Of a DNA stretch of 61,652 nt, positions 1-49,789 are shown in pieces. The notes below the pieces were generated by a model. The model was not told the DNA's origin. It searched no databases and was given only the letters and a program-made list of their open reading frames with translations. How positions within the stretch are numbered: the first letter of the stretch is position 1; each line of letters begins with the position of its first letter. Source of the stretch: Campylobacteraceae bacterium (GTDB lineage Bacteria > Campylobacterota > Campylobacteria > Campylobacterales > Sulfurovaceae); the NCBI GenBank assembly GCA_027080995.1, contig JALWNT010000029.1, positions 1-61,652 of the forward strand, given 5' to 3'. The translations under genes were made by a program, and so were the position numbers.

Positions 1-375
1 GCTGATGATCTCCGGGGAGACGCGGTAGCGACGGGAGGCGAGCCTCAGCCAACGGCGGTTTTTCGCCATAAAGCGCCTCCCGAGTGCGACGCTTTCGGCG
101 ATGAGGATTTTGCGTTTGTAGCGGCTCCAGCTGAAGTCGGTGCTTCCTACCTTGTGCCGTCCTTGGTATCGGGCGAGGGTTTCGCTCTGATGTTTCGCCC
201 GTTTCAGCAGGGCGTAGAGACGGGCTTTGTCGAAGCCGTATCTGCTGTGCATCTTTTCGACGAAAGCCCGGGCGGCGGGAAGGCGGGAGTAGTCGACGCT
301 CTTAGCCTGGAGAGGGAGCAGAATAATGAGAAACGAGAAAATAGAAATGAGAAATTTGGGGGCGTTGCTGTGCAA
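1..375 (-). CDS. MltB-like lytic murein transglycosylase, 3' part missing
   Basis: The minus strand reads a hydrophobic N-terminal segment ending near LLPLQAKS, then a region typical of the MltB/SLT_2 family: a helix with AFVEKMHSRYGFDK, a stretch around AKHQSETLARYQG and FSWSRYKRKIL, then RFMAKNRRWLRLASRRYRVS with PEII at the window edge. The family cleaves peptidoglycan glycan strands from the periplasm. The catalytic Glu would lie beyond position 1, so it cannot be checked. No ATG is in frame; TTG at 375 is the only conventional start seen and has no Shine-Dalgarno, so the start is uncertain. The leader overlaps a quasi-repeat tract. It lies downstream of aroC on the same strand. Confidence 0.68.
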   Translation of the reverse strand, partial: MHSNAPKFLISIFSFLIILLPLQAKSVDYSRLPAARAFVEKMHSRYGFDKARLYALLKRAKHQSETLARYQGRHKVGSTDFSWSRYKRKILIAESVALGRRFMAKNRRWLRLASRRYRVSPEIIS

Positions 376-480
376 CGTGATTAAATGGAGGCGGGACTTC
401 AGTCCCGCAATGCAGGGCAGAAGCCTTGCCTCCAATATACTAATATACCAATACACCAATGACGGCGCCAACGGCGCCTT
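319..480. repeat. mosaic intergenic repeat, copy 1
   Basis: Modules in order on the plus strand: a GAGAAACGAGAAA-type array (319-353); hairpin GCGTTGC/GCAACG (362-376); hairpin GCGGGACT/AGTCCCGC (391-408); hairpin GCAGGGC/GCCTTGC (412-429); a CCAATA-type array (432-460); hairpin GGCGCC/GGCGCC (from 464). The same order recurs near 9.1 kb and 19.3 kb. It fills the gap between aroC and the transglycosylase gene. Confidence 0.8.
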
Positions 481-7890: not shown

Positions 7891-7912
7891 GCGTTGCGCT
7901 GCAACGCTTTTT
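7891..7912 (+). terminator. Intrinsic terminator between the DUF507 gene and carA
   Basis: GCGTTGC-GCT-GCAACGC is a perfect 7-bp stem followed directly by TTTTT. The same hairpin recurs as a module of the mosaic repeats (9123, 43220, and degenerate at 362 and 19284). Confidence 0.75.
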
Positions 7913-9058: not shown

Positions 9059-9578
9059 CGATCGCACCGTTTGACGGTGCGACTTGATGATGGATTCTAG
9101 ATTCTGGATGTTGGATGTCGGGGCGTTGCGTTGCAACGCTTTCTTTTGGAGGCGGGAATTCATTCCCGCAATGCAGGGCTGAGGCCCTGCCCCCAATGAC
9201 CAATGACGTCGCCGAAGGCGACAGTCCTTGCGACTTGCGACGTGAGGCCCGAAGGGCCGTGCTTGCGACTTATAATTTTTCCTCTTCATTTCTTTTTCTT
9301 TGTTCTCGCGACAAAGAAAAAGGAAACGAAGCAAAGAAAAAGAAAACGCGAAGGACTGACGTCAAATAGAACGTTCCAGTTGAACCCAAAATTTGCATTA
9401 GCCAGCACGCCATCTGCGCCGATCATCAACACATCTGACGCACTTTCTATTGCAAAATTTGGGTTGAATTGAGGATTGTATAGAAAGTAGAGTGGCGCCT
9501 TGTGGCCCCACCAACGAAACTAAAAATCTTGCGACGTGAGGCCCGAAGGGCCGTGCTTGCGACTTGCGACTTCCTATA
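9059..9578. repeat. Repeat-dense spacer, mosaic copy 2
   Basis: No gene is supported in this 520-base gap. In order it holds: hairpin TCGCACCGT/ACGGTGCGA (9062-9082), GGATTCTAGATTCTGG-type array (9091-9118), hairpin GCGTTGC/GCAACGC plus T-rich tract (9123-9146), hairpin GCGGGAAT/ATTCCCGC (9152-9169), hairpin GCAGGGC/GCCCTGC (9173-9190), CCAATGA array, hairpin GTCGCC/GGCGAC (9207-9221), TTGCGAC array, a 36-base perfect direct repeat (9235-9270 and 9529-9564), a TTTCTTTTTCTTTGT/ACAAAGAAAAAGGAAA hairpin (about 9289-9326) and an inverted pair at 9384-9398 and 9451-9465. Confidence 0.8.
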
Positions 9579-9914
9579 TCAAATCAGCCAATTCTCCAAA
9601 TGGCACGCCTCCTCACTGAAAGGGAGGCTTTTCCACCCTTTTCCTTCAAGAAGCATCACTCTGCCGCCGAAATTGCCGGAGGCGTAGCGTTCTTTGTAGA
9701 TGGGGTAGAGTCCCGCCCGAAAGGCACCGAAAAGCTCGGAGAAGTTTTCGGGATGAGTATAGGGGTCGAAATCGAGGGAGTGGATCGCTTTGAGGGTTTC
9801 GCGCAGATTTTCGTCTCGGTGGAGCTTGGGACTCAGCAGATACCAAGCGGGGTAAGAGAGGGGAGGATCTTCCAACAGATCGTAGAGGTAGAGCCGCTCC
9901 TTTTTCACGTGCAA
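9579..9914 (-). CDS. Hypothetical protein downstream of the PiT transporter gene
   Basis: 111-aa protein with no recognised family. It begins MHVKKERLYLYDLLEDPP, is rich in Leu, Tyr and Glu, and has no signal peptide or membrane helix. A segment around PYTHPENFSELFGAFRAG suggests a small globular domain. It follows the transporter gene on the same strand after 49 bases filled by an array and a hairpin, so it may be cotranscribed. It is kept as probably real because the sequence reads as balanced protein and the opposite frames are poor. Confidence 0.5.
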   Translation of the reverse strand: MHVKKERLYLYDLLEDPPLSYPAWYLLSPKLHRDENLRETLKAIHSLDFDPYTHPENFSELFGAFRAGLYPIYKERYASGNFGGRVMLLEGKGWKSLPFSEEACHLENWLI

Positions 9915-12699: not shown

Positions 12700-12700
12700 G

Positions 12701-12826
12701 GATTGCGCTTTGCGCAATCTTGTTATTGGTATATTGGTGTATTGGTTATTGGGTTAAAAAGCTCCGGCACTTGCTTCAGCGCCGAAGGCGCCCCCTAATA
12801 CACCAATAACCAATATACCAATTACA
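12701..12826. repeat. Hairpin plus inverted mosaic repeat between pstS and pstC
   Basis: Hairpin GATTGCGC-TTT-GCGCAATC (12701-12719) lies 1 base after the pstS stop. Then come a TATTGGTG-type array (12722-12752), a GGCGCCGAAGGCGCC-like hairpin (about 12778-12793) and the inverse CACCAATA-type array (12796-12825). The two arrays can pair over about 25-30 bases into a long stem. Confidence 0.82.
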
Positions 12827-12848
12827 CACCCCCCCTTGTTCCCATTCT

Positions 12849-19239: not shown

Positions 19240-19257
19240 GGAGCTTCTAGCTCCTTA
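19237..19257 (+). terminator. Hairpin beginning at the galE stop codon
   Basis: TAAGGAGC-TTCTA-GCTCCTTA is a perfect 8-bp inverted repeat whose first three bases are the galE stop. No T-tract follows. Confidence 0.5.
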
Positions 19258-19423
19258 TCCGAGTGAAGAGTGAGAAATTGAGTGGCGTTGCTTTGCATAG
19301 CTTTTTTTCGAAGGCGGGAATTCATTCCCACACTCTTCAGGGCTGAAGTCTTCAACTCCACCTACCGCGCCGAAGGCACACAAAATGCCCCATGCCCAAT
19401 GCCGTCGCCGAAGGCGACTCTCG
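19258..19423. repeat. Mosaic intergenic repeat, copy 3
   Basis: Same module order as at 319-480 and 9087-9221, partly decayed: a GTGAAGAGTGAGAAATTGAG array (19263-19282), GCGTTGC hairpin with long T-run (19284-19309), a decayed GGCGGGAATTCATTCCC hairpin, a decayed TTCAGGGCTGAAG hairpin, an ATGCCCC array (19384-19402) and hairpin GTCGCC/GGCGAC (19403-19417). It separates convergent galE and the helicase gene. Confidence 0.78.
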
Positions 19424-33058: not shown

Positions 33059-33111
33059 GGCCCAAATACCCTGAGCATCCTATTCCAAATCGAGAAAAAA
33101 ATCTTCCCCTC

Positions 33112-33138
33112 TGTAGGTTTGGCTCCGCCAAACGTCTC
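33112..33138 (+). repeat. REP-like palindrome, copy 1
   Basis: TGTAGGTTTGGC-TCC-GCCAAACGTCTC: the GTTTGGC/GCCAAAC core forms a perfect stem. Other copies are at 37673, 45148, 48757 and 48876. The surrounding spacer 33059-33287 holds nothing else recognised except a weak -10 (TACAAT, near 33250) for the next gene. Confidence 0.7.
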
Positions 33139-33287
33139 AGGGATCTCCAAGAAACTTCCACGCTTCTTTTATCCATAACTACAACATATACACACACCAA
33201 TCGAAATCCGAAACAAAGAATGCGAAGATCGATTTTAAGTCGCTTTGGGCTACAATTTATCGCAATCCCATCACTCAAGGAGAACGA

Positions 33288-34367: not shown

Positions 34368-34525
34368 CGATAAGCGCATAGGCGCTTATCGAGTTATTGG
34401 TGTATTGGTGTATTGGTAGATTGGGAGTGACGGTTTCGATGATACGATGCGCTGAAGAAGGTGCGGAATTGGAATTTTTCAGAAAATTCAATAACCAATA
34501 TACCAATAGACCAATAACCCAATCC
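34368..34525. repeat. Hairpin plus inverted mosaic repeat between dctP-like and dctQ-like genes
   Basis: A perfect 10-bp hairpin CGATAAGCGC-ATAG-GCGCTTATCG (34368-34391) begins right after the stop. A TATTGGTG-type array follows (34393-34424), then 64 unique bases, then the inverse CCAATA-type array (34489-34523). The arrays can pair into a long stem. The layout matches that between pstS and pstC. Confidence 0.82.
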
Positions 34526-34536
34526 GAAGGATTGCC

Positions 34537-37656: not shown

Positions 37657-37672
37657 GGAGAGACCTCAGCCG

Positions 37673-37699
37673 GAGACGTTTGGTGGGGCCAAACCTACA
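37673..37699 (-). repeat. REP-like palindrome, copy 2 (overlaps the moeA-like stop)
   Basis: GACGTTTGGTGGGGCCAAAC core, inverse orientation of the copy at 33112. The TAG stop of the moeA-like gene (37695-37697) is part of the repeat. Confidence 0.7.
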
Positions 37700-38888
37700 G
37701 CGGCCAGACCGTGACGACGTCCCCCGCTTCGGCGCTGCCGTGCTCGGCGTCGATCATCGCCAGGGCGTCGCTTTGGGCGAGGGTCAGGAAGTTGGAGGTT
37801 TGTTGTGATCCCGCGCTTTTTGCGTAGAGCCGCCCCGCTTCGCTATGCAGGCGGACGCGCACGAAATCGATGCGTCCGGTTTTGGAGCGCAGCGGCTCTT
37901 CGGCAATCGCGGTGAGGGTGCGGTTCTCGTAGTCGCTCAACCCCGCCATTTTCCGAACCGAAGGCAGCAAAAAGGCCAGAGCGTTGACCATTAATGCCGC
38001 GGGGTAGCCCGGCAAGCCCAGAAAGCGCTGGCCCTCCCGTGTGCCGAAAATCAGCGGCCGTCCGGGGCGGATATTGGTATGGGTGAAATGGATCGTCAGC
38101 CCCAGCACTTCGGCGATGGTTTTGGTGAAGTCGTATTTGCCCTTCGAGGCGCCGCCGCTGCTAAGGAGAAGATCGTTTTCCCTCAGCGCCGCGTCAAAGA
38201 GGGGAATCATCCGCTCGGGCTCATCCTGCATGATGCCGTAGTAGCGAATCTCGGCATAGGGGGCCAGCAACCCTCTGAGGATGTAGTGGTTGCTGTTGCG
38301 CACTCCCGCACTCTCACGCTCCTCCCAGGGTTCGCGCACCTCGTCTCCCGTGACGACGATGCCGACGCGCACTTTCGGATAGACTCGCACTTGATAGTAA
38401 CCGAGATTGGCCAGCAAGGCGACGGTTTTGGCATCCAGCATCGTGCCGGGGGCCAGGACCTCTTGGCCCTTGGTCACCTCATCCCCTTTGGGGTTGATGA
38501 GATCGCCCTTTTTGGGGGCTTTGAGGATGGTTACCCGATCGCCTTCGACCTTCACATCTTCGATCCGTACGGCGGTGTCGGCCCCTTCGGGCACCAGCGC
38601 GCCCGTCATCGTAAAGACCGCCTCTTGCGGCCCCACCGCGGGGGGTGTAGCGCCGCCTGCGCGGCTTTCGCCGATGATTTTGAGTGTGGCGGGATACTCT
38701 TTGATCGAATCAAACGCGAAAGTGTAGCCGTCGATGGCGCATTTGGCCGCTTCGGGGATATCGAAGCGCGCCGTGATACTTTGAGCCAGGATGCGCCCTT
38801 GTGCATTCTCCAGCGTGACTGTCTCGGGGATGCCGGACGTCACAGACTCCAACAGAGCCGCCTTGGCCTCTTCGTAGGTGCGGGTCAT
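37695..38888 (-). CDS. Molybdopterin molybdenumtransferase (MoeA-like)
   Basis: 397 aa. It inserts molybdate into adenylated molybdopterin. MoeA features: IPEAAKCAIDGYTFAFDS near the N-terminus (usual motif AMDGYA), TGALVPEGADTAVRIED, VGIVVTGDEV, SSGGASKGKYDF and LGLPGYPAALMVNALAF. The ATG at 38888 has a strong AAGGAG 5 bases upstream; the frame is open further, inside the previous gene. It overlaps that gene by 4 bases. It supplies cofactor for enzymes such as the PsrA-like protein. Confidence 0.9.
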   Translation of the reverse strand: MTRTYEEAKAALLESVTSGIPETVTLENAQGRILAQSITARFDIPEAAKCAIDGYTFAFDSIKEYPATLKIIGESRAGGATPPAVGPQEAVFTMTGALVPEGADTAVRIEDVKVEGDRVTILKAPKKGDLINPKGDEVTKGQEVLAPGTMLDAKTVALLANLGYYQVRVYPKVRVGIVVTGDEVREPWEERESAGVRNSNHYILRGLLAPYAEIRYYGIMQDEPERMIPLFDAALRENDLLLSSGGASKGKYDFTKTIAEVLGLTIHFTHTNIRPGRPLIFGTREGQRFLGLPGYPAALMVNALAFLLPSVRKMAGLSDYENRTLTAIAEEPLRSKTGRIDFVRVRLHSEAGRLYAKSAGSQQTSNFLTLAQSDALAMIDAEHGSAEAGDVVTVWPL

Positions 38889-41732: not shown

Positions 41733-41740
41733 GGCCGGTG

Positions 41741-43081
41741 ATGAAAGAGCTCTACCGTCAGATCCCCAAAATCGACCGGCTCCTTGCCGAGGAGGTATTC
41801 AGCGGATGCAACACCGCCTTGTTGACCGAGGCGATCCGGCAGGAGATCGAGCTTCTGCGCGACGCCATCGGCCGAGGAGAGATGCAAGGCATCGACGAGG
41901 AACCCTTGAAAGCGGCGATCCTCCGGCGCTACGGGGAGATGAGCCGCCCTTCGCTGCGTCCCCTGGTCAACGCCACCGGGGTCATCATCCACACCAATCT
42001 GGGGCGCTCCCCCATCGACCCCGAGCTCTTCGAGGAGGCCCGCGCCGTCGCCACGGGGTACTGCAACCTCGAGTACGATCTGGAGGCGGGGCGCCGGGGG
42101 GACCGCTACACCCACACCGCCGGAGCGCTGCGAGAACTCCTGGGTTGCGAAGAGGCCCTGATCGTCAACAACAACGCCGCGGCGGTTTTCCTGATCCTCA
42201 ACACCTTCGCCCAGGGCAAAGAGGCGATAGTCTCCCGGGGAGAGCTGGTGGAGATCGGCGGGAGTTTCCGCATCCCGGAGGTGATGGCGGCCAGCGGGGC
42301 GAAGCTGGTGGAGGTGGGGACCACCAACAAAACCCGCATCGCCGACTACGAAGCGGCGATCGGCGAGGAGACGGCGATGCTGATGAAAGTGCACAAATCC
42401 AACTACGCCATCGAAGGCTTCAGCGCCGAGGCGACGATGGAGGAGATCTCGGCCCTGGCGCGTGAACGGGGGGTGATCGACTATTACGATCTGGGAAGCG
42501 CCTATTTGCCGGAACTCCCCTGGGGGCTGGGGGCGGCGGAGCCCTCTTTGCCAAAGATTTTGCGCGATCCCCCATCGCTGCTCAGCTTTAGCGGCGACAA
42601 GCTCTTCGGCGGGGTGCAAGCAGGCATCATCCTGGGGCGCAAACCCCTCATCGACCGGCTCAAAAAGAATCAGATCCTGCGGATGTTCCGGGTCGACAAG
42701 GTGACGCTGGCGCTGCTGGAGCGGACGGTGCTGGCCTACCGCCGGGGGGAGACGGAGAAGATCCCCGTCCTGCGGATGCTCTTTGCCACGCCTGAGCAGC
42801 TGCGAAACCGGGCCGAGGCGCTGAGAAAACGCCTGTCGATCCCGGCGGAGATCCTGGATTCGCAGACCTACGTCGGCGGCGGCACGATGCCCAACCGGAA
42901 GATCCCCACTGTCGTCCTGGCGCTGGAGGGGGATCCTCAAACATTGGAAGCCGCCTTCCGGGCGCGCAGGATCATCGGACGGATCGAAAACGACTGTTTC
43001 GTGCTGGATATGCGGACGGTGGAGGAGAAGGATTTCGCTCAGATTGTCGAGGCGGCGGAGGAGATATTTGATGGTCATTAG
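41741..43081 (+). CDS. selA: L-seryl-tRNA(Sec) selenium transferase
   Basis: 446-aa PLP enzyme that converts Ser-tRNA(Sec) to Sec-tRNA(Sec). SelA features: RPSLRPLVNATGVIIHTNLGRSP, EYDLEAGRRGDRY, VNNNAAAVFLILNTFA, KVHKSNYAIEGF and the PLP Lys in FSGDKLFGGVQAG. ATG at 41741 is preferred to the GTG one codon earlier. It is followed by selB; the substrate tRNA gene is at 49.7 kb. selD is not in the window. Confidence 0.97.
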   Translation: MKELYRQIPKIDRLLAEEVFSGCNTALLTEAIRQEIELLRDAIGRGEMQGIDEEPLKAAILRRYGEMSRPSLRPLVNATGVIIHTNLGRSPIDPELFEEARAVATGYCNLEYDLEAGRRGDRYTHTAGALRELLGCEEALIVNNNAAAVFLILNTFAQGKEAIVSRGELVEIGGSFRIPEVMAASGAKLVEVGTTNKTRIADYEAAIGEETAMLMKVHKSNYAIEGFSAEATMEEISALARERGVIDYYDLGSAYLPELPWGLGAAEPSLPKILRDPPSLLSFSGDKLFGGVQAGIILGRKPLIDRLKKNQILRMFRVDKVTLALLERTVLAYRRGETEKIPVLRMLFATPEQLRNRAEALRKRLSIPAEILDSQTYVGGGTMPNRKIPTVVLALEGDPQTLEAAFRARRIIGRIENDCFVLDMRTVEEKDFAQIVEAAEEIFDGH

Positions 43082-43309
43082 TCATTGGAGAAAACGTGCT
43101 AAGTGCTACGTGCTAAGTGCTACGAGAAGTTGTGGCGCCGTTATTGGTGTATTGGTGTATCGGTGTATCGGGGCTGTTCTTCGTCGTTTGTCGTTCGTCG
43201 TTTGTCGTTTGAACAAAAGCGTTGCTAAGCAACGCAAACCGAAATTCTCCATTCTCCATTCTCCATTCTCCATTAAAAAACTACCCACTCATCTCTCAGG
43301 CGGTCCCGT
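43082..43309. repeat. Five repeat arrays between selA and selB
   Basis: In order: GTGCTAAGTGCTAC array (43097-43123), TATTGGTG array (43141-43171), TCGTTTGTCGTTCG array (43180-43210), hairpin GCGTTGC-TAA-GCAACGC (about 43220-43236) and CATTCTC array (43243-43275). No gene is supported in this 228-base gap. It is the densest example of the mosaic repeats. Confidence 0.85.
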
Positions 43310-45139
<1,830 letters not shown>

Positions 45140-45147
45140 AGGCAAGG

Positions 45148-45173
45148 GTAGGTTTGGCCCCGCCAAACGTCTC
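45148..45173 (+). repeat. REP-like palindrome, copy 3
   Basis: GTAGGTTTGGCCCCGCCAAACG core, 8 bases after the selB stop, same orientation as the copy at 33112. Confidence 0.72.
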
Positions 45174-45260
45174 TGTCTACGATATTTACTTGGTGGGGTA
45201 ATAAATTGGCAAGATCGCTATAATGCGGCTTATGATTTTTATAAACGATGAAGGGACCGG

Positions 45261-46483: not shown

Positions 46484-46520
46484 AGGGGAGAGAGTGTTGT
46501 GGGTTCGGTCCCGCCACACG

Positions 46521-47255
46521 TTACTGCTTTCGCTGCTGCAGGATCCAGCGGGAGATTCCTTCGAGCTGTCGGGGGCTCAAGCCTTTGTAGGCGCGCATAG
46601 GGGTATGGTATTTCGGCCAGGCTCCGCGGCTTCCTTCAGTGATGGCTTTTTCGATCTTTTTGAGGCCTTCCTCCTTGTTCTTCGCATATTTCCGGGCGAT
46701 TTCATCGAAGCCGGGAGCGAGTCTGCCTCTGCCCTGGATGTGGCAGAGCCGGCAGTCCCGGGTCTCGAGGACCTGCTGCCAGGCGGGGAGGCGGGCGAGG
46801 CGGTTGCGCTCTTTCATCGCCGCCAGCATCGCCATCTGGTCGTAGCGGTCGTAGATCGCAGCGGCCACCGCCCGGGCCTGTACGGGGGTGATCTGCCCCT
46901 TGAGAGAGGGCATTACACCGTAGAGCTTGAGGCTGGCGGGATCACAGTAGGATTTTTTGCGGGAGGGGTGTATGACATAATCGGAAACAAAATCGATGAA
47001 TTTCGCCCGCAGTGCCGAGGGGTCGTCGCTTTTCATCCGATCTTTGAGGTGGACGGTGACGGTATAGAGCGGAGGCGCCTTCTCGTCGTCGCTGGTTTTG
47101 GGGGGCATATCGAGATTGTGGCAGCGGGCACAGACCCGGTGGAGGAGTGCATCCACCTGGGCAGGGGAGGGGGCGGCTTCGTGATTTTTCTTTTCGCCGG
47201 AGCAGTTGTTGAGGCCGAGAAGGATGAAAATAAGGAGAGGAAGATATTTAATCAT
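46521..47255 (-). CDS. Dihaem cytochrome c lipoprotein
   Basis: 244 aa. A signal with lipobox (LNNC, Cys18) anchors it. Two haem c sites are CARCHN (Cys42-His46) and CRLCHI in the second half; two later Met residues (GVMPSLKG and HTPMRAYKG) are candidate axial ligands. Each half looks like a small cytochrome c domain. It probably shuttles electrons in the periplasm, perhaps to the cbb3 oxidase; the partner is unknown. It lies tail-to-tail with the antiporter gene. Confidence 0.88.
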   Translation of the reverse strand: MIKYLPLLIFILLGLNNCSGEKKNHEAAPSPAQVDALLHRVCARCHNLDMPPKTSDDEKAPPLYTVTVHLKDRMKSDDPSALRAKFIDFVSDYVIHPSRKKSYCDPASLKLYGVMPSLKGQITPVQARAVAAAIYDRYDQMAMLAAMKERNRLARLPAWQQVLETRDCRLCHIQGRGRLAPGFDEIARKYAKNKEEGLKKIEKAITEGSRGAWPKYHTPMRAYKGLSPRQLEGISRWILQQRKQ

Positions 47256-48653: not shown

Positions 48654-48964
48654 TTGAGGATTGAGGATTGAGAATGGAGAATTCCGGGATCATCCTCTTC
48701 TCTCGTTCCCACCATCTTGGTGGGAACGCATATTCCAAGGCAAGATCGACCGTCGATGTAGGTTTGACCGTGTCAAACGTCACAGGGGATGTGCTTGCGT
48801 ATGTTTGAACATTTTTTGGAGATGTGGACCGGAATTAACCATTTGATCGTTTCTGAGTGATGAATCGTTATCGGGGACGTTTGGCGGGGCCAAACCTACC
48901 TGGTCTATCTTTACAAAAATAATGTATTTTGCTATAAGCATGTAAAGCATAAAAGAGGAGGGGT
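48654..48964. repeat. Repeat-rich spacer before the toxin-antitoxin pair
   Basis: It contains a GATTGAGGATTGAGAATGG array (48652-48678), palindrome CGTTCCCACC/GGTGGGAACG (48704-48728), REP-like copy 4 (48757-48783, plus) and copy 5 (48876-48900, minus) facing each other, and an AT-rich promoter-like stretch (48905-48950). No gene is seen. Confidence 0.75.
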
Positions 48965-49689: not shown

Positions 49690-49789
49690 TGGCGAGAGGG
49701 TGGAGGAATCGAACCTCCCTCCGGACGGTCATCCGCCCGGACGATCGGGTTTGAAGCCCGCGGTGTCCACCAGGATCACATACCCCCCG
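49690..49789 (-). tRNA. selC: tRNA-Sec (anticodon UCA)
   Basis: On the minus strand: anticodon loop CTTCAAA gives UCA; a long variable arm CCGGGCGG-ATGA-CCGTCCGG; T arm GGAGG-TTCGATT-CCTCC; 3' strand ACCCTCTC, discriminator G and encoded CCA. These identify selenocysteine tRNA. The 5' acceptor strand reads CGGGGGGT, giving two G-U pairs and a terminal C-C mismatch. The D stem GTG(A)TCC/GGACAC has a bulged A, and the anticodon stem has one G-A mismatch. selA and selB are 4.6-8 kb away. Confidence 0.88.

What the first reader, a model, noticed from the sequence alone, without database searches (positions are those of the whole stretch)
319..480. Modular mosaic repeat with the same order of parts at three loci
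At 319-480, 9087-9221 and 19263-19417 the same order of parts is seen on the plus strand: short quasi-tandem array, GCGTTGC/GCAACGC hairpin, GGCGGGA..TCCCGCC hairpin, GCAGGGC..GCCCTGC hairpin, CCAAT/CCCAAT-type array, and a GGCGCC or GTCGCC..GGCGAC hairpin. Units in the arrays differ between copies while the hairpins are kept or decay by paired changes. Position is always between genes. This is not a CRISPR, IS or known REP layout; it recalls the heptanucleotide STRR repeats of filamentous cyanobacteria combined with hairpins. Common origin, or a common process that builds such gaps, is inferred.
Basis: partly seen in the sequence, partly recalled or inferred. Interest (0 to 1): 0.78.

Follow-up and report, generated by a model that had tools for sequence, protein, structure and literature searches.

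The report
Ordered intergenic REP-doublet and heptamer mosaic
The gaps between genes of this Nitratifractor-like bacterium carry dozens of copies of one multi-part DNA element, a fixed sequence of hairpins and 7-8-letter tandem repeats, which is a new relative of the known REP/BIME repeats but has no recognisable transposase of its own.

Summary
Two of the three loci carry the full order; the third (19263-19417) is a decayed copy. It is far from chance: about 19 strong and further weaker copies in the same genome, and tens of copies in each of seven congeners (genus Nitratifractor, Campylobacterota). Over 91 doublets the GCGTTGC hairpin lies directly upstream 71 times and never downstream; the CCAAT array lies downstream 39 times and never upstream or inverted. 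The core is a REPIN/BIME-like pair of inverted REPs (GGAG-tagged palindromes, tags outward, about 3 nt apart), so 'not a known REP layout' is wrong for the core. The composite with heptamer arrays appears new and genus-specific; in other genera the doublet stands alone. Hairpins are kept by paired changes (38 of 41 double changes). Copies sit in tandem and convergent gaps, antisense to tandem genes 48:15, and avoid divergent gaps. No Y1/RAYT gene exists in the genome, and those read in relatives are not REP-flanked. Orthologous copies persist across species, while arrays turn over quickly, changing unit length throughout. Best reading: a non-autonomous REPIN-like element dispersed and retained as a unit, with slippage-prone arrays between stable hairpins. 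Mover and function are not shown.

The parts
321..357 (+). copy 1, left quasi-tandem array (GAAATGA-type)
   Evidence: direct reading
362..378 (+). copy 1, module A hairpin GCGTTGCTGTGCAACGT
387..408 (+). copy 1, module R: GGAG-tagged REP GGAGGCGGGACTTCAGTCCCGC
412..433 (-). copy 1, module r: inverted REP (GGAGGCAAGGCTTCTGCCCTGC on the minus strand)
432..463 (+). copy 1, CCAATATA/CCAATACA 8-nt array
464..478 (+). copy 1, module C hairpin GGCGCC-AAC-GGCGCC
   Evidence: fold
9085..9119 (+). copy 2, left array (GGATTCTAGATTCTGGATGTTGGATG)
9123..9139 (+). copy 2, module A hairpin GCGTTGCGTTGCAACGC
9148..9169 (+). copy 2, module R (GGAGGCGGGAATTCATTCCCGC)
9173..9194 (-). copy 2, module r (inverted REP)
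9192..9207 (+). copy 2, CCAATGA heptamer array
9208..9222 (+). copy 2, module C hairpin GTCGCC-GAA-GGCGAC
19262..19283 (+). copy 3 (decayed), left array
19285..19301 (+). copy 3, module A with broken 3' arm (GCGTTGCTTTGCATAGC)
19310..19331 (+). copy 3, module R (GAAGGCGGGAATTCATTCCCAC)
19336..19349 (+). copy 3, remnant of module r
   Evidence: covariance model 42 bits over 19280-19368
19384..19403 (+). copy 3, CCCAATG array
19404..19418 (+). copy 3, module C hairpin GTCGCC-GAA-GGCGAC
7891..7907 (+). solo module A between genes
   Evidence: orthologous A-like hairpin in G005
43219..43235 (-). solo module A between genes
12715..12834 (.). inverted pair of ATTGG / CCAAT arrays around a GCGCCGAAGGCGC hairpin; both arms are 8-mer type here and 7-mer type in relative G005
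   Evidence: (I17)
34385..34527 (.). inverted pair of ATTGG / CCAAT 8-mer arrays in a gap

Best explanation
The loci are three copies of one composite intergenic repeat family. Its core is a REPIN/BIME-like doublet: two GGAG-tagged palindromes in inverted, tags-outward order about 3 nt apart. In this genus the doublet is joined on its left to a GCGTTGC hairpin, which carries its own heptamer array, and on its right to a CCAAT-type 7/8-mer array, often followed by a GGCGCC-type hairpin. SHOWN: the order is fixed, the hairpins are held by paired changes, the composite is found essentially only in this genus while the doublet alone occurs in other genera, many sites are orthologous between species, and arrays change unit type while hairpins stay. 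INFERRED: the doublet spreads (or spread) as a non-autonomous hairpin element acting as single-stranded DNA on the strand that reads A-R-r, moved by a factor that is not a resident RAYT. It settles where it does not disturb promoters (tandem and convergent gaps). The arrays are produced and re-homogenised by replication slippage or template switching beside the stable hairpins, seeded from the element edges (..CTCCAAT|GACCAAT; ..GAATT|GAGAATTTCGG).
For: Many copies in the own genome and in relatives. Strict order over 91 doublets. Stand-alone doublets in genera g6 and g7. In 400 kb of G011 (one 2.1-Mb contig) hairpin A carries a left heptamer array and has no GGAG doublet, so the composite looks like two older modules joined. 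Double changes kept:broken R 17:1, r 12:2, A 9:0 (p = 3e-7). One-sided transitions in R and r keep a G.T wobble on the A-to-r strand 55:21 (p = 1e-4), whereas A, about 20 nt away, shows 6:13 (Fisher p = 0.002), so the bias is not a regional mutation bias. Gap choice: antisense 48, sense 15, convergent 16, divergent 2. Arrays: L007 vs L066 differ as 8-mers against 7-mers in register; at window 12700 both inverted arms differ together between G000 and G005; by distinct places G000 has 4 seven-mer against 23 eight-mer loci, G005 11 against 6 (p = 0.001).
Against: No mover is identified: Y1_Tnp is absent from the genome and the RAYT-like genes of G001, G007 and G010 lack the REP, and those of G001 and G010 are flanked by unrelated TIRs. 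No clean insertion into an otherwise identical gap was found; in the 19240 gap G005 lacks the doublet, but the flanking arrays differ too. Orthologous copies are as conserved as, or more conserved than, flanking genes in several pairs (100, 96.6, 96.6 and 90% against about 80%), which a purely selfish, decaying element would not show. The wobble counts are copies, not independent events.
Confidence: 0.6

Rival explanations
1. The composite is a host-functional intergenic element (3'-end stabiliser, attenuator, supercoiling or gyrase/IHF site between genes), kept by selection and not mainly a mobile repeat.
For: Orthologous copies keep copy-specific variants over species whose genes are about 80% identical; hairpins are kept by paired changes; divergent promoter gaps are avoided and copies lie antisense to tandem genes 48:15.
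Against: Whole species of the genus lack it (G003, G004, G012 none; G010 one weak hit); the same gap holds different modules or nothing in close relatives; the pairing constraint in R and r is on the strand that is mostly antisense to transcription; no intrinsic terminator was found at copy 2.
Confidence: 0.25
2. Sequence-driven gap building: replication slippage and template switching at inverted repeats create arrays and hairpins again and again in the same order, with no transposition of a unit.
For: Arrays share unit classes with distant bacteria, and heptamer arrays are known in marine Beggiatoaceae, cyanobacteria and Bacteroidetes (PMC4679880); inverted arms differ together between species; uniform 8- versus 7-mer difference; a hybrid R/r hairpin in L023 looks like a hairpin-mediated deletion.
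Against: The hairpin cores share 18-22 nt sequences between unlinked loci and genera, which slippage cannot create. It can explain the arrays, not the hairpins.
Confidence: 0.1
3. A classical RAYT-driven REPIN system whose RAYT was recently lost from this lineage.
For: Layout equals the REPIN head-head dimer; RAYT-like genes exist in some congeners.
Against: None of G000, G002, G005, G006, G009 (all element-rich, though three are only 75-88% complete) has a Y1 gene while element-poor G003, G010, G011, G012 do; the RAYT-like genes read are not REP-flanked.
Confidence: 0.2
4. Chance resemblance or assembly artefact.
For: Most genomes are MAGs and contigs sometimes end at these gaps.
Against: Covariance-model E-values to 1e-23; conserved order across independent MAGs; arrays and A hairpins also in the single-contig genome G011.
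Confidence: 0.01

Closest known systems
REPINs / REP doublets (Bertels & Rainey 2011, PMC3116915)
   Same: Two REPs in inverted orientation, intergenic, tens of copies, hairpins under paired change
   Different: Tag is GGAG, not GTAG/GTGG; the genome has no RAYT; embedded in an ordered composite with hairpin A and heptamer arrays
GTAG- and CGTC-tagged REP super-families (Di Nocera 2013, PMC3733652)
   Same: Short stem with 4-nt loop, head-head heterodimers, intergenic; CGTC REPs likewise lack a dedicated transposase; Sulfurovum, same family, carries both
   Different: Neither tag; the paper reports only a few REP families regularly tied to other repeats and none as an ordered STRR mosaic
BIMEs of enterobacteria
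   Same: Mosaic of inverted REPs plus other short motifs in a preferred order between genes
   Different: Extra motifs here are a second hairpin family and 7/8-mer tandem arrays
Heptanucleotide STRRs of filamentous cyanobacteria and TAACTGA repeats of marine Beggiatoaceae (PMC4679880)
   Same: 7-nt intergenic tandem arrays; the (GTCATTG)n unit is shared with Nostoc-type plasmids
   Different: Here arrays occupy fixed slots next to specific hairpins and switch between 7- and 8-mers
Small dispersed repeats of Nostoc (Elhai et al. 2008; paper not held, known only from citations and memory)
   Same: Very small mobile modules, as recalled often within heptamer arrays
   Different: Sequence and order could not be compared here

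Membership tests
REPIN | two inverted REPs, tags outward, forming one hairpin | tested here: met
   alignment and consensus fold
REPIN | RAYT encoded in the genome | tested here: not met
   PF01797 absent in own genome (99.95% complete); absent also in element-rich G002, G005, G006, G009
REPIN | RAYT gene flanked by the same REP | tested here: not met
   no such REP within 1.5 kb of RAYT-like genes of G001, G007, G010; G001 and G010 copies carry TIRs instead
REPIN | disperses as a unit | tested here: inconclusive
   stand-alone doublets in other genera but no clean empty site
GTAG-tagged REP | GTAG (or GTGG) at one end of the palindrome | tested here: not met
   5' tag is GGAG in nearly all copies
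CGTC-tagged REP | CGTC at one end | tested here: not met
   a separate CGTC-type family does exist in the window
BIME | mosaic of REPs in alternating orientation with other short motifs, extragenic | tested here: met
BIME | bound by IHF, gyrase or Pol I | not testable with these tools
   needs experiment
heptanucleotide STRR | intergenic tandem arrays of 7-nt units | tested here: met
   114 period-7 arrays vs 1 in shuffles; 125 of 166 arrays of period 7-9 in gaps
heptanucleotide STRR | unit shared with filamentous cyanobacteria | tested here: met
   half of the 26 matching plasmid records are heterocystous cyanobacteria
small dispersed repeats (SDR) of Nostoc | sequence and insertion-site identity with SDR1-5 | not tested
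   paper not held
MITE / IS remnant | terminal inverted repeats with target-site duplication | not tested
   flanks of stand-alone copies were only read by eye
CRISPR | 25-40 nt repeats with unique spacers | tested here: not met
   units are 7-9 nt head to tail

The most novel reading that the evidence does not exclude
Gaps follow a slot grammar that outlives its parts. The order [heptamer array - hairpin A - hairpin slot - CCAAT array - GGCGCC hairpin] is kept while the slot is filled by different, unrelated hairpins: the GGAG doublet in G000 and G008, a GTAGGTTTGGC..CGTC REP dimer in G005 at carA, a GCGGGTGCAGCCCGC hairpin in G011 (L074), nothing in G005 at 19240. Inverted array arms switch unit together. 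This would imply a directional process of gap assembly or targeting (hairpins recruited next to hairpin A or CCAAT arrays, arms copied by template switching) that is, to my knowledge, not described for bacteria.
Probability: 0.18. Interest if true: 0.8.

Novelty: new variant of a known kind. Interest (0 to 1): 0.52.

Why it matters
REP doublets and heptamer arrays have been treated as separate puzzles. Here they form one ordered element in a small-genome bacterium that has no RAYT, with congeners that carry it, lack it or hold different modules in the same gap. That makes two open questions testable: what moves REPs without a resident RAYT, and why bacterial tandem arrays favour 7 nt and are so often found beside hairpins.

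Tried and rejected
RAYT association: searched PF01797 in own genome and 60 genomes of relatives, read flanks; rejected. Known RNA family: Rfam gives only tRNA-Sec and a tRNA. Plasmid origin: composite has no match in 72,556 plasmids. Published sequence: none of four core strings occurs in the 5.39 million papers searched. Terminator reading: no terminator at copy 2 by the simple scan; hairpin A does often carry a T run on its 3' side, but in most tandem gaps that strand is antisense. Intragenomic gene conversion as the reason for similarity: not favoured where orthologues are closer than any own paralogue (L005/L080, L006/L078, L011/L129); weak or reversed in other pairs. Gene calls are my own hexamer-scored ORFs, not a curated annotation. 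Mutation strand bias as the cause of the wobble asymmetry: disfavoured because hairpin A shows the opposite direction.

Full report
WHAT WAS CHECKED. Copies 1 and 2 are complete; copy 3 is a decayed relative: hairpin A has lost one arm, r is a remnant, and the fold is no better than shuffles. The parts are: left array; hairpin A (GCGTTGCnnnGCAACGC); about 9-10 AT-rich nt; R (GGAG + GCGGGACTTCAGTCCCGC); AAT; r (GCAGGGCTGAAGCCCTGC + CTCC); a CCAAT array; hairpin C (GGCGCC or GTCGCC). R and r are inverted relatives of each other with a GGAG tag at both outer ends, so the centre is an inverted REP pair.

COPIES AND ORDER. A blastn of one copy in the own genome gives 31 places. An alignment of 15 copies folds into A, R, r and an outer GGAG/CTCC stem. 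The covariance model built from it finds 19 own-genome hits above 62 bits and further weaker ones; some of the weaker hits are reverse-strand matches to the same palindromes. Gene-gap parsing of 808 kb shows modules in the order A R r C G (G = GATCCGCgAAGCGGATC) or its reverse, and R, r and a CGTC-type REP almost only in gaps. Over 91 doublets from the genus and relatives: A within 50 nt upstream 71, downstream 0; CCAAT array downstream 39, upstream 0, inverted 0; CGCC..GGCG hairpin downstream 39, upstream 5.

TAXON AND DISTRIBUTION. Exact-pattern search of 84,980 genomes returns 25 loci, all from MAGs named Nitratifractor sp. or Campylobacteraceae bacterium. Several are the same records as the genus genomes here (L082 = L129 and L078 = L130, 100% over 3.1 kb), so the window's genus is taken to be Nitratifractor (Sulfurovaceae; lineage). 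Besides the own genome, seven of twelve congeners have 35-74 hits (G001, G002, G005-G009; in G007 only weaker, divergent ones), two have few (G010, G011) and three have none (G003, G004, G012). In genera g6 and g7 the doublet stands alone, with one exception (L067) that has hairpin A upstream. In 400 kb of G011, a single 2.1-Mb contig, hairpin A occurs with its left array but without the GGAG doublet. So the composite looks like a join of two older modules.

CONSTRAINT. In 104 doublets found with a sequence-only profile, double changes keep pairing 38 of 41 times (p = 3e-7). One-sided transitions in R and r preserve a G.T wobble on the A-to-r strand 55 to 21, while hairpin A, about 20 nt away on the same strand, shows 6 to 13. 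This points to the R-r pair being read as a single strand of that polarity. The counts are copies, not independent events, so I treat it as suggestive.

POSITION. Doublets lie in tandem gaps antisense to transcription 48 times and sense 15 (p = 4e-5), in convergent gaps 16 times and in divergent gaps twice. This is the usual REP habit of sparing promoters, with an added orientation bias. Because the constrained strand is mostly antisense, an RNA role of the constrained strand is less likely than a single-stranded-DNA role.

MOVER. The own genome has no Y1 transposase. Across the genus, several element-rich genomes lack it and element-poor ones have it, although three of the former are incomplete. 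RAYT-like genes of G001 and G010 are bounded by AGGGGTCAGGTGA-type inverted repeats and none of those read in the genus has the GGAG REP nearby; this matches the TIR-associated class that Di Nocera separates from REP-associated ones (PMC3733652). The known CGTC REPs also lack a transposase (same paper).

TIME AND TURNOVER. Many sites are orthologous between species with genes 77-92% identical. Element identity is often above gene identity (100, 96.6, 96.6, 90%) and copy-specific variants are kept in several pairs; in two pairs identity falls off smoothly into the flanking genes, which suggests local exchange between species. Yet gaps change module content quickly: at carA the nearest relative G005 carries a GTAGGTTTGGC..CGTC dimer instead, G009 a different hairpin, and five species with a co-directional next gene lack the GGAG doublet. 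At aroC and at 19240, modules come and go.

ARRAYS. Period 7 dominates (114 arrays vs 1 expected; period 8: 30 vs 1). Units switch: G000 favours CCAATAYA 8-mers, G005 CCAATGA 7-mers. In L007 vs L066 the CCAAT units differ in register (8-mers vs 7-mers) while the hairpins stay. At 12700 the array left of the hairpin and its inverted partner on the right are both 8-mer in G000 and both 7-mer in G005. Template switching between inverted arms, or replacement of the whole module, would do this.

VERDICT. A real, apparently undescribed, genus-specific composite of known kinds: REPIN/BIME-like doublet plus a second hairpin family plus heptamer STRRs in strict order. Mobility in trans is inferred, the mover is unknown, and a retained host function is the main rival.

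Noticed in passing
window 33108-33141, 37670-37703, 45147-45183, 46499-46524, 48758-48783, 48864-48900: A second REP family, GTAGGTTTGGC[C/T]CCGCCAAACGTC, with GTAG at one end and CGTC at the other; it fills the carA gap of G005 as an inverted dimer in place of the GGAG doublet.
   Followed up: partly
window 9279-9364: An ~82-nt dispersed repeat (TTTCTTTTTCTTTGTTCTCGCGACAAAGAAAAAGGAAACG...), about 90-99% identical in dozens of copies over the genus, lying just right of composite copy 2 and in the same order at some G008 loci.
   Followed up: no
window 49694-49788 (minus) and ORFs 41738-43081, 43310-45139: Selenocysteine tRNA gene (Rfam RF01852); the ORF at 41738 reads LVNATGVIIHTN, which recalls SelA, so a sel cluster may lie here.
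   Followed up: no
L062 vs L063 (G008, G001); L005 vs L080 (G000, G009): Intergenic mosaic 97-100% identical between species whose genes are about 80% identical, with identity falling off on both sides: looks like short-tract interspecies recombination centred on the mosaic.
   Followed up: partly
window 9059-9914 and orthologues: The gene next to carA is inverted in G000, G005, G008 and G009, and the gap then holds a mosaic; in G001, G002, G006, G010 and G011 it is co-directional and the gap lacks the GGAG doublet.
   Followed up: partly
L023 1119-1155: Hybrid hairpin TGGAGGCGGGACTTCAGTCCTGAAGCCCTGCCTCCA, as if R and r had fused by deletion within the doublet.
   Followed up: no
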